From Azotobacter salinestris (GTDB taxonomy: Bacteria > Pseudomonadota > Gammaproteobacteria > Pseudomonadales > Pseudomonadaceae): a stretch of DNA of 64,000 nucleotides. The stretch covers positions 1,067,001 through 1,131,000 of the forward strand of contig NZ_CP045302.1 of assembly GCF_009363155.1 (NCBI RefSeq). Direction: 5' to 3'. Positions within the stretch are counted from its first letter, which is position 1; the number at the start of each line of letters is the position of its first letter. Positions 2,961-56,203 of this stretch are shown in pieces. Made by a program: the position numbers and the translations under genes. Below the pieces are notes generated by a model, which saw nothing but the letters and a program-made list of their open reading frames with translations, had not been told where the DNA came from and ran no database searches.

Positions 2961-3667
2961 CCGAATCGATCGCCTTGCAGTCGTTGGACTCCTTCGCCGG
3001 AACCTTCCAGTGCTGGTGGAACCGCCAGGGGGAATGGGTTGAGGAACCCAATGCCCGTCGGGCCGGGGAAAGCGGCGTGCAGCGCCTGAGCGCGCACAGC
3101 GTGCCGCTCTACAGCAAGCGCCAGACCGGCCACCTCTACCACTCGCTGCGCCACCCCCTCGGCCGGCCGACCGTGCTGCGCGAGCAGGATGCCCTCGAGG
3201 CCGTCGAGCGTCTCGGCGTGCGGGTGCCGAAGATCGTCTTCTGTTCGGCGCGCAAGACCGACGGCAAGTGGCAGGCCCTGCTGGTCACCGAGTCGCTGGA
3301 GGGCTTCGTCAGCCTGGACGACTGGTACCGTGGCGATGCGCGCCAGCGCTGGGGCGAAGCGGTCCACCGGCAGGTGCTCGAGCAGCTGGCCCTGACCCTC
3401 AGCCGCCTGCACCGGGGCCACTGGCAGCACGGCTGCTGCTATCCCAAGCACATCTTCGTCAAGGTCGAGGAGCGCGACGGACGCCCGCAGGTGGAGATCG
3501 CCCTGATCGACCTGGAAAAGAGCCGCCAGCGCCTGCGCGTCGCCACCGCCTCGCGGCGCGACCTGGACCAGCTGCGCCGCCACAGCCCGGCCATGTCGCC
3601 GGCCGAGTGGGCCGTCCTCAAGGCCGCCTACGACAAGGCCCTGGCCGCGCCGGCCGAAGACGCCTGA
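2957..3667 (+). CDS. inaA: InaA/WaaP-like lipopolysaccharide kinase family protein
   Basis: Protein of 236 residues starting at GTG 2957, overlapping the methyltransferase stop. It has the eukaryotic-protein-kinase-like fold of the Kdo/WaaP/InaA family: a loop motif HGCCYPKHIFV (about residues 156-166) stands for the catalytic loop and ALIDLEKSRQR for the metal-binding segment. Members phosphorylate LPS core sugars or remain without known substrate. The coupling to the methyltransferase and the position behind colRS point to envelope maintenance. A strong hairpin terminator directly downstream closes the unit. Confidence 0.8.
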   Translation: MTESIALQSLDSFAGTFQCWWNRQGEWVEEPNARRAGESGVQRLSAHSVPLYSKRQTGHLYHSLRHPLGRPTVLREQDALEAVERLGVRVPKIVFCSARKTDGKWQALLVTESLEGFVSLDDWYRGDARQRWGEAVHRQVLEQLALTLSRLHRGHWQHGCCYPKHIFVKVEERDGRPQVEIALIDLEKSRQRLRVATASRRDLDQLRRHSPAMSPAEWAVLKAAYDKALAAPAEDA

Positions 3668-52942: not shown

Positions 52943-53078
52943 CAAAAAAAGAGGCGAGGATAACCTCGCCTGCTCTTCAGTCCTTTTTTTCCCTTTTTTC
53001 CTGACTCATCGTCCTGATGATTCGTCGTCCTGCGAAGTCCCTGGCTGTCATCCGCGGCAGCCCGTGTCACTCCGTCGA
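52943..53078 (-). ncRNA. Body of a second Rsm-type RNA (3' exon)
   Basis: Minus strand with repeated GGA motifs: CGACGGAGTG, GCCGCGGATG, CCAGGGAC, CGCAGGACG, the hairpin TCATC-AGGAC-GATGA (53006-53020), then AGTCAGGA...AGGACT, and the terminator GGCGAGG-TTAT-CCTCGCC (52953-52970) with a seven-T run. Order and words match the RNA at 29.8 kb almost block by block (GGCTG, GGATG, GCCA.GGA, TCGCAGGA, TCATCAGGA). Its 5' end directly meets the group II intron end, so the RNA appears split by the intron. Confidence 0.7.
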
Positions 53079-53119
53079 GTCGGGTAGGGATTGGCCATTA
53101 CTGGCCCATCCCCCCCTAA

Positions 53120-53153
53120 GAACCGTGCGTGCGATTTTCACCGCACACGGCTC
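53120..53153 (-). ncRNA. Domain V of the group II intron
   Basis: Thirty-four nucleotides, GAGCCGTGTGCGG-TGAAA-...-CGCACGCACGGTTC type: AGC catalytic triad region at the 5' side, GAAA tetraloop and two-base bulge. The typical catalytic hairpin. Confidence 0.9.
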
Positions 53154-53214
53154 AAGCCTACATGAAGCCAAAGCTTGGCCGGCAACGCACGGAGTGTTGC
53201 GGGCGACTATACCA

Positions 53215-54948
53215 CTATAAGCCGCTGTGGAGCAGTTCTACCTGTCTATCCTGGCTGTGGACCAGTGCATGGCAGTTCGGGTGAAGCAGCACGCGATTGC
53301 TCCGGGTATCTGGCCCGCCGTCCACCCGCCTGATGACGTGGTGATCGTGCCAACCGGTCTCCTTGCTGATCGCATGCCCACACAGGGCGCATTGACCCTG
53401 CTGTCGCCGGAAAAGCCCGAGGATCTGTCCCCGATAACGCAGCTTGTGCTGCATCCGTTGGACTCTCAGTTTCTCCCACTTCAGCTCCTGCGCCGCGTCG
53501 TAGGGCTGGTAGTCTCCCGGAAGACGCTTGTGGCGCACGATCGTGGTGTCGGCCAGCGCATATAGCCGACGGTACTTCACCTCTGCCTTGCTGTTTCTGT
53601 ATGGGAACGCGAACACCCAGTTCCGTCCGTTTATGGAGTGAAAGTATTTCTTCCGAATCCACACCGCGGACTTCTTCGGATGCCTGCGTTTCGCCCACCT
53701 CCAGAGTCGCCAGTGGATCAGGTGATCCAGCGTGCTGAAGGTTTTTTGCGCTACTGCCGAGGCATGGTAGTGCGCCCATCCCCGTAGCACCGGGTTCAGC
53801 TGGCCGATCAACGCTTCCTGCGTCAGGGTGCCGCTGCCTTTGATGATCTCCCGCACCTTCCGATAGAACGCCGAGACGTTCTCCTTCGAGGGTTTGATCA
53901 GCAGCTTGTCCTTTCTGTAGGGCGATTTCGGCACGTATTTCCTGAAGTTCCACCCCAGAAAATCGAAGCCCTGGTGGATATGCGTGATCTGCGTTTTCTC
54001 CCGGGACAGCTCGACCCCTCGTACCGACAGGAATTGCTCGACCCAAGGTTTGACCTCGTTTTCCAGCAGCTCCTTGGAGGCTGCCGTAATCACGAAATCA
54101 TCCGCATAACGCACCACTTGGACTTTCGTCCTCTCGGCCTTCTTGACGCCCAGCTTCTTTGCCAGATGGCGTTTCAGCTGGGTTTCCAGGCCATTCAGGG
54201 TGGCGTTCGCCAGACAGGGAGAGATGATGCCTCCCTGTGGCGTCCCGGCTTCCGTGGCCATGATTTGTCGCCGGTCGATCACTCCGGCACTCAACCACTT
54301 GCGCAGCACCGTCCGGTCCATGGGGACATTCCGGCACAGCCAGTCGTGGTTGATGTTGTCAAAGAACCCCTTGATGTCGCCCTCCAGCATCCATTGCGGA
54401 CTGTCCTGCCGTGACAGCAGGGCAAAGAGTTCGACCATGGCATCGGCGGTCGAGCGGTCTGGGCGGAAGCCATAACTTTTCGGATCGCTGGTGCTTTCTA
54501 TGACAGGTTCCAAGGCGAGCAGATAGAGCGCCTGCATGGCCCGATCCAACATCGTCAGGATACCCAGCGGGCGTTTTTCCTGCTTGCCGGGTTTCGGTAT
54601 CCACACCCGCCGAAGCGGTTGCGGCCGATACCCTCTCTTTTCTGACAAACGCATCACGGCCTGGAACTTCGAGCGGGGCGTTGCCCATTTCTCTCCATCC
54701 ACGCCCGGGGTCTTGCGACCCCGATTCTCCGTGACTCGCCGCACGGCCAGACAGCGGCCGTGAAACGAGTGGGTCAGCATCCGTTGCAGGCGTTTAACCC
54801 TGCGCCAGTCGCCTTCCCCTGTTGCCTGCGCAATCTTCAACTGCGTTTTCCGAACGGAGGTCTGGATTCTGGCCCAGTCGAGACTGTGCCAACCCGTCAC
54901 CCCGCCGAAGGACGCAGACTTTGCCGGTGTTGCTGGCTGCGTTTTCAT
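53215..54948 (-). CDS. Group II intron reverse transcriptase/maturase with HNH domain
   Basis: Protein of 577 residues from the ATG at 54948 (an upstream in-frame ATG at 55047 is less likely because it extends into domain I-III RNA). Reverse transcriptase blocks RT0-7 (about 40-330) with RKTPGVDG, IPKPGKQEKRPLGI and catalytic YADD (281-284); maturase domain X (about 360-470); DNA-binding and HNH endonuclease with CALC...HHVI...NCHALVH (about 525-570). It supports splicing and retrohoming of the intron. Confidence 0.93.
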   Translation of the reverse strand: MKTQPATPAKSASFGGVTGWHSLDWARIQTSVRKTQLKIAQATGEGDWRRVKRLQRMLTHSFHGRCLAVRRVTENRGRKTPGVDGEKWATPRSKFQAVMRLSEKRGYRPQPLRRVWIPKPGKQEKRPLGILTMLDRAMQALYLLALEPVIESTSDPKSYGFRPDRSTADAMVELFALLSRQDSPQWMLEGDIKGFFDNINHDWLCRNVPMDRTVLRKWLSAGVIDRRQIMATEAGTPQGGIISPCLANATLNGLETQLKRHLAKKLGVKKAERTKVQVVRYADDFVITAASKELLENEVKPWVEQFLSVRGVELSREKTQITHIHQGFDFLGWNFRKYVPKSPYRKDKLLIKPSKENVSAFYRKVREIIKGSGTLTQEALIGQLNPVLRGWAHYHASAVAQKTFSTLDHLIHWRLWRWAKRRHPKKSAVWIRKKYFHSINGRNWVFAFPYRNSKAEVKYRRLYALADTTIVRHKRLPGDYQPYDAAQELKWEKLRVQRMQHKLRYRGQILGLFRRQQGQCALCGHAISKETGWHDHHVIRRVDGGPDTRSNRVLLHPNCHALVHSQDRQVELLHSGL

Positions 54949-55877
54949 ACAGTCCTCCTCAAGGTCGCGAACTCTCGAGGCGGACTGCCCCCAAGGGGTG
55001 GAGTCCGCCCCTCGGGTCGTTTTCATGCTGGAATCAGCGGTTTTCATTGCGCCTGTAGACCAGGTGCACGTCAGCCAGGGTTATCCCCTGCCGATACTTT
55101 TTCAACCGGTATACGACCCATTACAGGTCGCCCTTCGCTTCTTGCACCGTCCCATTCCCCACACCCCTCAGCGCCCCTTGCGGGTCGCCTGCCCGTGCCG
55201 TTGCCGGCCGTTGGCGGGTGGTCGGGATTACCACGTTCCCCGGAACGCATCGATTCCCCGTTTAGGCTCCGTCTTTCCCCCGGCAGGTGTCTGGTACCGC
55301 ATCGCATCCGGTGACTGCGATGACCACCTGCGGTGCCGTTTTTGGCTGAGGCCGATAATTGCCGTAGGCCCCGTTATCTTAACGAGGGTTCGATCGACGA
55401 TTCACATGCGTTAGCCATGCGGGTTGGGTCACTAGCCCCCCTGTGCCCGTGCAATTCGGACACAGCGCGCGCTCCGTCACCGGATCGCGCTTCTCTGACG
55501 AGAGGAGACATTGTTGATCGGGCTTCACACCCCGGGGTTGGCCCCCGACGCATGCCGATCTAGTGAACTGGCGGGTACACGCCAGGCTCGGTACTCCCTG
55601 AACCAGCGGAGCTGAGCAATGCAATCCGGAGCTGTCGCTCCGTGCTTGGTTGAAAACACCTCCGGCGTCTCACGACGGGGGCGAAGGCCAAAACAGCCGA
55701 GTCGCTCCGAAGGTGAATTCTGCCCCGGAGGGCCTTATTCACCCTCAGGGGTTCTCGAAATATTTTTGAAACGGATTCGAATGGTTCGAACCGTTCTTTC
55801 TCAGGCGTCCAGATCAAATTTTGACCGTTTCCGGTCAAATCTGAGGCGCATTTACCCCGTCAGACGGGGATCATGCC

Positions 55878-55920
55878 TCCCCGCAGGCGGGTCTTTTTAG
55901 CCTGGGCAAGCCAGGTGTTT
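55878..55920 (+). other. Two tandem terminator-like hairpins inside the intron 5' part
   Basis: CCCG-CAGG-CGGG followed by TCTTTTT and CCTGG-GCAAG-CCAGG followed by TGTTTTT on the plus strand. On the minus strand they would be stems within intron domain I. They could stop antisense transcription into the intron, or simply be structural helices. Confidence 0.4.
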
Positions 55921-56018
55921 TTAGGCTTATTTAGGCTTCAGCTCCTTGAATATCAAGAAGTTAGGTGCCACAGGGAGCTACCCCAACCAAGCGATCGACA
56001 CGAGCATACGTGTCGCAC

Positions 56019-56125
56019 CACGGGGAAGATATTAGCGCGCGCGCCGGGCCGGACAAGGGGACAAAACCCGCCCCTTGTGCCATGGGCGCCTCTTCAACCG
56101 AAATAAAATCCCAATCAATTCAATT
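56019..56125 (-). ncRNA. Predicted 5' exon of the split Rsm-type transcript
   Basis: From the predicted start behind a GacA box to the intron 5' end. It holds an AT-rich start, one GGGA motif and a seven-pair hairpin CAAGGGG/CCCCTTG. It is longer than the few nucleotides that precede the first GGA hairpin in the RNA at 29.9 kb, so extra sequence may have entered here. Assignment as exon rests on the IBS1/EBS1 match and the promoter. Confidence 0.45.
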
Positions 56126-56131
56126 AATTAA

Positions 56132-56203
56132 ATACTACTCGACAGCCTGCCCGGCACGCAGGCAGCTACCCTGCCTACACCGCATGTAGGTAATGACTTA
56201 CAC
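56132..56203 (-). promoter_or_regulatory. GacA box with -10 element
   Basis: TGTAAGTCATTACCTACA (56203-56186 on the minus strand) matches TGTAAG-N6-CTTACA in 11 of 12 defined bases and shares 16 of 18 bases with the box of the RNA at 29.9 kb. A -10-like TAGTAT (56137-56132) follows after 48 bases, against 44 in the first case. Confidence 0.75.

What the first reader, a model, noticed from the sequence alone, without database searches (positions are those of the whole stretch)
52943..56203. Gac-controlled Rsm-type RNA apparently split by a group II intron
Seen: a GacA box (56186-56203) with a -10 at the proper distance; an intron whose 5' end (GTGCG at 56018) is fixed by a perfect IBS1/EBS1 match; and, directly behind the intron 3' end, a GGA-hairpin RNA body and terminator (52943-53078) that matches the Rsm RNA at 29.8 kb. 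Known: RsmX/Y/Z RNAs sequester RsmA and are driven by GacA. Inference: functional RNA would require splicing, making the intron an extra control point, or the RNA has been disabled. I know of no described Rsm RNA interrupted by an intron.
Basis: partly seen in the sequence, partly recalled or inferred. Interest (0 to 1): 0.88.

Follow-up and report, generated by a model that had tools for sequence, protein, structure and literature searches.

The report
Intron wedged at small-RNA start site
A mobile self-splicing intron sits about four letters into a gene for a regulatory small RNA, and it belongs to a family of introns that lands almost always ten letters past the core promoter box of bacterial genes, many of them housekeeping genes, an insertion habit a 2015 review does not list.

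Summary
The core observation holds. A complete group II intron (56018-53079, minus strand; intact RT/maturase/HNH protein) separates an RsmZ-type RNA (Rfam RF00166, 84.6 bits) from its GacA box. Two same-genus genomes have the empty site with a continuous rsmZ (CCGTG|TCGACGG); a third carries the same insertion.

The promoter is not near 56138/56125: the conserved rsmZ -10 (TAATAT, 56034-56029) ends 10 nt before the intron, so the 5' exon is about 4 nt (CGUG) and a spliced RNA would be about 138 nt. The true EBS1 is CACCGG at 55313-55308, with one mismatch.

The insertion follows a family rule. In 52 of 55 distinct sites of related introns a TANNNT -10 box starts 15-17 nt upstream of the 5' splice site (background 1.5%), with a weak -35 signal at 17-bp spacing; most sites lie just upstream of genes such as glnS, efp, dnaX, fur, ftsY, secB. 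EBS1 and EBS2 covary with DNA at -1..-6 and -9..-13, mostly upstream of the RNA start. A 2015 review lists only homing sites, terminators and attC as targets; Michel 2007 could not be read. Whether this rsmZ still yields functional RNA is open.

The parts
56186..56203 (-). GacA box (TGTAAGTCATTACCTACA)
   Evidence: Sequence; matching box in empty relatives L012/L014 and in the interrupted G002 copy L042 at -184 from the intron
56051..56056 (-). -35-like element TTGTCC
   Evidence: TTG(C/T) at the matching place in most Pseudomonadaceae rsmZ promoters
56029..56034 (-). -10 element TAATAT of rsmZ, at -16..-11 from the intron
   Evidence: Conserved in most rsmZ orthologues; same offset, allowing +/-1, in 52 of 55 sites of the intron family
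56027..56031 (-). IBS2 (-13..-9, TATCT), upstream of the predicted RNA start
   Evidence: Covaries with EBS2 across 55 sites
56019..56024 (-). IBS1 (-6..-1, CCCGTG)
   Evidence: Covaries with EBS1 across 54 sites, z about 21
56019..56022 (-). Predicted 5' exon of the sRNA, CGTG (+1..+4)
   Evidence: Alignment with uninterrupted rsmZ; RF00166 position 1 falls 4 nt before the junction
53079..56018 (-). Group II intron, 2940 nt
   Evidence: Rfam RF02012 and RF00029; junctions fixed by empty sites and by family ends GTGCGACACG...CTACCCGAC
55996..56015 (-). 5'-terminal hairpin CGACACG-TATGCT-CGTGTCG
   Evidence: Sequence; exact CGTGTCG within 70 nt in 17 of 55 sites; the leading GTGCGACACG was itself the search pattern for 5' ends
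55437..55586 (-). Intron catalytic core match (D1D4-7)
   Evidence: RF02012, 90.6 bits
55375..55380 (-). EBS2 (AAGATA), pairs fully with IBS2
   Evidence: Covariation scan, intron nt 639-644
55308..55313 (-). EBS1 (CACCGG), 5 of 6 pairs with CCCGTG, C.C mismatch at -4
   Evidence: Covariation scan, intron nt 706-711
53215..54948 (-). Intron-encoded protein: RVT_N, RVT_1, GIIM maturase, HNH endonuclease, 577 aa, no stops
   Evidence: Pfam, NCBIfam TIGR04416 360 bits
53079..53155 (-). Domains V and VI and 3' splice site
   Evidence: RF00029, 65.8 bits
52945..53078 (-). 3' exon: RsmZ RNA from about +5 to the terminator
   Evidence: RF00166 84.6 bits; 87% identical to the uninterrupted orthologue in L012
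29766..29903 (-). Second RsmZ-type RNA, uninterrupted, with its own GacA box at 29983-29966 (close type, ~80 nt)
   Evidence: RF00166 54.2 bits; sequence

Best explanation
The locus is a Gac-controlled rsmZ gene into which a complete, probably mobile group II intron has inserted between about +4 and +5 of the transcript, 10 nt behind the -10 hexamer. Placement (shown by comparison): the intron belongs to a clade that recognises DNA by EBS1 pairing with -1..-6, EBS2 pairing with -9..-13, and a further T-16 A-15 (with T-11) motif that coincides with the sigma70 -10 element; insertion at this fixed spot puts the intron directly under a host promoter and leaves the promoter and nearly the whole leader of the gene intact. 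Consequence (inferred): IBS2 and part of IBS1 exist in the DNA but not in the RNA made from that promoter, so the site can be homed into as DNA, while spliced host RNA offers little for the excised intron to attack. For mRNAs the gene can still be translated from its own start site even without splicing. For rsmZ, which needs a defined 5' hairpin, precise splicing would restore it, while the unspliced RNA keeps the downstream GGA hairpins but not hairpin 1. I think this copy yields less or altered RsmZ; the genome has 14 other RsmZ-family matches.
For: Empty sites and a second interrupted genome. Conserved rsmZ promoter layout. 52 of 55 non-redundant sites with TANNNT at -15..-17 vs 1.5% background; best TTGACA match at spacer 16-18 averages 2.73 vs control 2.34 (sd 0.10, max 2.55), peaking at 17. 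EBS1 z about 21, EBS2 z 10-16; per-position pairing 0.83-0.98 at -1..-6 and 0.80-0.95 at -9..-13. T-16 and A-15 lie outside the covarying positions. 50 of 53 sites have a same-strand ATG ORF within 300 nt, 35 within 60 nt, 20 of them named by NCBIfam. Joined efp and glnS sites occur uninterrupted at up to 100% identity in other species. The clade is monophyletic (support 0.96) apart from one tip, L168, which itself has TATTAT 9 nt upstream; groEL stop-codon and tRNA introns fall outside. Hairpin 1 alone: -7.6 kcal/mol joined, -4.2 and refolded when unspliced. Excised group II introns attack spliced host mRNA (PMC6003770).
Against: No RNA data: start site, splicing and RsmZ level are not measured. 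The full-length fold does not show hairpin 1 in the minimum-energy structure of either version. The -35 signal is weak. The 55 sites include some at the same gene in different species. Exceptions exist (L131/L151 behind a stop codon; L071 apparently inside an ORF). The 5' ends were located with the pattern GTGCGACACG, so clade members with another 5' end were hardly sampled.
Confidence: 0.8

Rival explanations
1. One reading: transcription starts near 56125, the 5' exon is about 107 nt, and regulated splicing gives a ~240-nt functional Rsm RNA.
For: Box and RNA are on the same strand and an AT-rich stretch lies about 60-70 nt behind the box. Some rsmZ genes, including the one at 29.8 kb, do have the box ~80 nt upstream. 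A longer 5' exon would offer full IBS1 and IBS2 to splicing.
Against: Orthologues at this locus have the box 179-181 nt before the RNA and a conserved TAATAT just before it; the intron family sits at that -10 offset generally.
Confidence: 0.1
2. The TANNNT motif is only a DNA sequence read by the intron protein; promoter location is a by-product of such AT-rich motifs being rare inside genes and of selection against insertions in genes.
For: The intron protein contributes to target specificity through contacts with DNA exons (PMC4424553). A few sites are not promoters.
Against: The -35 peak at 17 bp and the short distance to gene starts show that the sites are largely real promoters; this does not exclude the rival as the cause of the placement.
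Confidence: 0.45
3. This rsmZ copy is simply inactivated by the insertion and tolerated because the genome has many other Rsm RNAs.
For: 15 RF00166 matches in the genome; ~4-nt 5' exon with a mismatch at -4.
Against: RNA body, terminator, GacA box and promoter remain conserved, and the first stem is fully complementary across the junction; a recent insertion could also explain this.
Confidence: 0.45

Closest known systems
RsmZ / PrrB regulatory RNA (RF00166)
   Same: Sequence and structure match over the full model, GacA box, rsmZ-type promoter, terminator
   Different: Interrupted at about +4/+5 by a 2.9-kb intron
Azotobacter groEL stop-codon group II intron (Ferat 2003, cited in PMC10012718; A. 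vinelandii and A. chroococcum, PMC4465626)
   Same: Related RT protein, same genus, placed where it spares an important gene; a neighbour in the protein tree
   Different: Inserts in a stop codon, begins GTGCGACGAGAG rather than GTGCGACACG, no -10 box at the offset
Class C group II introns behind transcription terminators or at attC sites (reviewed in PMC4424553)
   Same: Target a generic gene-expression element rather than one gene
   Different: Here the element is a promoter -10 box, and the protein carries an endonuclease domain

Membership tests
Group II intron | Domain V/VI and core structure | tested here: met
   RF00029 65.8 bits, RF02012 90.6 bits, both above gathering
Group II intron | Encoded RT/maturase | tested here: met
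   RVT_1, GIIM, HNH; TIGR04416
Group II intron | EBS-IBS pairing with the flanking exon | tested here: met
   Covariation in the family; this copy 5 of 6 for EBS1, full for EBS2
Group II intron | Splicing and mobility | not testable with these tools
   Needs RNA and mobility assays
RsmZ RNA | Sequence and structure match to RF00166 | tested here: met
   84.6 bits vs gathering 44
RsmZ RNA | Binds RsmA and is driven by GacA | not testable with these tools
   Box and promoter conserved; binding and expression not measured
Promoter-placed intron clade (as described here) | TANNNT ending 9-11 nt before the 5' splice site | tested here: met
   TAATAT at -16..-11; 52 of 55 relatives
Promoter-placed intron clade (as described here) | Not previously described | tested here: inconclusive
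   Not among the three target types in the 2015 review; Michel 2007 not held
Class C (terminator/attC) group II introns | Insertion behind a terminator hairpin or at attC | tested here: not met
   The site is a promoter; the empty site is a continuous rsmZ

The most novel reading that the evidence does not exclude
A lineage of group II introns has evolved a fourth kind of target, the sigma70 -10 element: it reads the box and the next ten bases as DNA and thereby keeps most of its recognition sequence out of the host RNA, which lets it live in front of housekeeping genes without attacking their spliced transcripts; in rsmZ this has placed a regulatory RNA under intron splicing.
Probability: 0.4. 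Interest if true: 0.9.

Novelty: new variant of a known kind. Interest (0 to 1): 0.78.

Why it matters
Bacterial group II introns are described as mostly outside housekeeping genes (PMC4424553, PMC6003770), and the 2015 review lists three target types. A lineage that sits at a fixed step behind -10 boxes of housekeeping genes would add a fourth, would help explain how such introns coexist with those genes, and gives a direct test: does hiding IBS2 and part of IBS1 upstream of the RNA start protect the host transcript? The rsmZ case is the sharpest version, because a small RNA, unlike an mRNA, cannot simply be translated from an unspliced precursor.

Tried and rejected
Searching for EBS1 as a perfect complement near a presumed coordination loop gave scattered hits at non-homologous places; an alignment-wide covariation scan replaced it. 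Regulated splicing with a 107-nt 5' exon was rejected on the conserved promoter layout. A class C terminator intron was rejected (the site is a promoter). Inheritance of the insertion from the common ancestor is not favoured: intron copies in G000 and G002 are 92-94% identical while the 3' flank is 82%, and G001 and G003 lack it; gene conversion is not excluded. In fragmented G002 the two intron copies could not be joined across contigs; the EBS1 read from contig C116 fits the rsmZ site better than its own flank, possibly an assembly mix. Literature searches for promoter-targeted introns found none in the open library.

Full report
WHERE. The window lies in a 5.29-Mb, 3-contig genome. Its genus carries many RsmZ-family RNAs (15 matches here; 8, 10 and 9 in the three same-genus genomes; mostly one elsewhere in the family). 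RsmZ1-7 and RsmY are known GacA-dependent RNAs of A. vinelandii (PMC12923157).

OBSERVATION. The RsmZ match (84.6 bits), the intron domains (90.6 and 65.8 bits) and the second RsmZ (54.2 bits) are above their gathering scores. The intron protein is complete. Joining the flanks of the window and aligning with L012 and L014 shows a continuous rsmZ there, joined at CCGTG|TCGACGG. A third genome, G002, has the insertion too: 3' side L039, 5' side L042, with the GacA box at -184. Its two sides lie on different contigs, so their continuity is inferred.

PROMOTER AND 5' EXON. In most Pseudomonadaceae rsmZ loci the GacA box is 178-192 nt upstream of the RNA start and a TAATAT-like -10 ends 6-7 nt before it; a minority have the box at about 80 nt. 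The empty orthologues of this locus (179 and 181 nt) are of the long type. In the window the -10 is 56034-56029 and the RNA start about 56022.

THE FAMILY RULE. Related introns were found by their protein or intron DNA, not by their flanks, and were given 5' ends by the pattern GTGCGACACG (GTACGACACG also accepted). Of 102 ends, 55 are non-redundant in the 40 nt upstream. T at -16 is found in 47, A at -15 in 48, T at -11 in 46. TANNNT at -15, -16 or -17 occurs in 52 of 55, against a mean of 1.5% for three adjacent offsets elsewhere upstream; the best TTGACA match at spacers 16-18 is 2.73 against 2.34 (sd 0.10) in control offsets, peaking at 17. Of 53 sites with both ends, 50 have a same-strand ATG ORF within 300 nt and 35 within 60 nt, median 37.5. 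Twenty named by NCBIfam include glnS, efp, dnaX, dapA, tig, fur, guaB, secB, rpiA, argF, coaBC, ftsY, def, ribF, rimO, ahcY, an octaprenyl diphosphate synthase, rnt, ubiE and tcdA. Joined 120-nt efp and glnS sites are found uninterrupted in other species, at 100% identity in one and two of them respectively.

RECOGNITION. A scan of the aligned intron 5' regions against the flank found one column each for EBS1 (z about 21 for -6..-1) and EBS2 (z 10-16 for windows between -13 and -6); pairing is 83-98% at -1..-6 and 80-95% at -9..-13. T-11 is nearly constant and so shows no covariation itself. T-16 and A-15 lie outside both pairings. In this window EBS2 AAGATA pairs fully with TATCTT, and EBS1 CACCGG pairs 5 of 6 with CCCGTG. 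Whether the protein or the state of the promoter provides the -16/-15 reading was not tested.

TREE. In a FastTree of 62 proteins the promoter-placed introns form one clade (54 tips, support 0.96) that contains one tip labelled as outgroup, L168, whose own site reads TATTAT 9 nt upstream; L155/L161 (groEL stop codon), L156 and L169 (in a tRNA gene) lie outside.

FUNCTION (inferred). With a start at 56022 the RNA holds only CGUG of IBS1, of which three bases pair with EBS1, and no IBS2. Splicing could therefore be weak. Joined, the first 20 nt form a 7-bp hairpin (-7.6 kcal/mol); with the intron end in place they form a different, weaker one (-4.2). The minimum-energy fold of the whole RNA does not show hairpin 1 in either case, so this is a local argument. 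Qu et al. report that group II introns reduce host gene expression by targeting spliced mRNA (PMC6003770); promoter placement would spare the transcript from this. That link is my hypothesis.

KNOWN OR NEW. The 2015 review names three target specificities: homing sites, terminators, attC (PMC4424553). Promoter -10 boxes are not among them, and open-library searches found no report. Michel et al. 2007, on specialised lineages and cited for the Azotobacter intron, could not be read; the novelty claim is conditional on it.

Noticed in passing
L169 (G609:C1, minus strand), intron 5' end near nt 600 and 3' end at 3186 in reverse orientation: A related group II intron splits a tRNA gene: GCGGGTGTAGCTCAATGGTAGAGCAGAAGCTTCCCAAGC|intron|TTAAGACGAGGGTTCGATTCCCTTCACCCGCTCCA; probably tRNA-Gly(CCC), judged by eye.
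   Followed up: partly
G000 (15 matches), G001, G002, G003: Genus-wide expansion of RsmZ-family RNAs, including matches on the two smaller contigs of the window's genome.
   Followed up: no
L033/L036, L054, L068: The ftsY promoter is occupied by introns of this family in several species, with a remnant in G003 (L158).
   Followed up: partly
efp and glnS leaders in several g16 genomes: The 120-nt leader matches in two pieces separated by a short insertion of roughly 60-200 nt, not at the intron junction.
   Followed up: no
L131, L151: Two family members sit just behind a stop codon (AAGATCAAGTAATTG|) rather than behind a -10 box.
   Followed up: no
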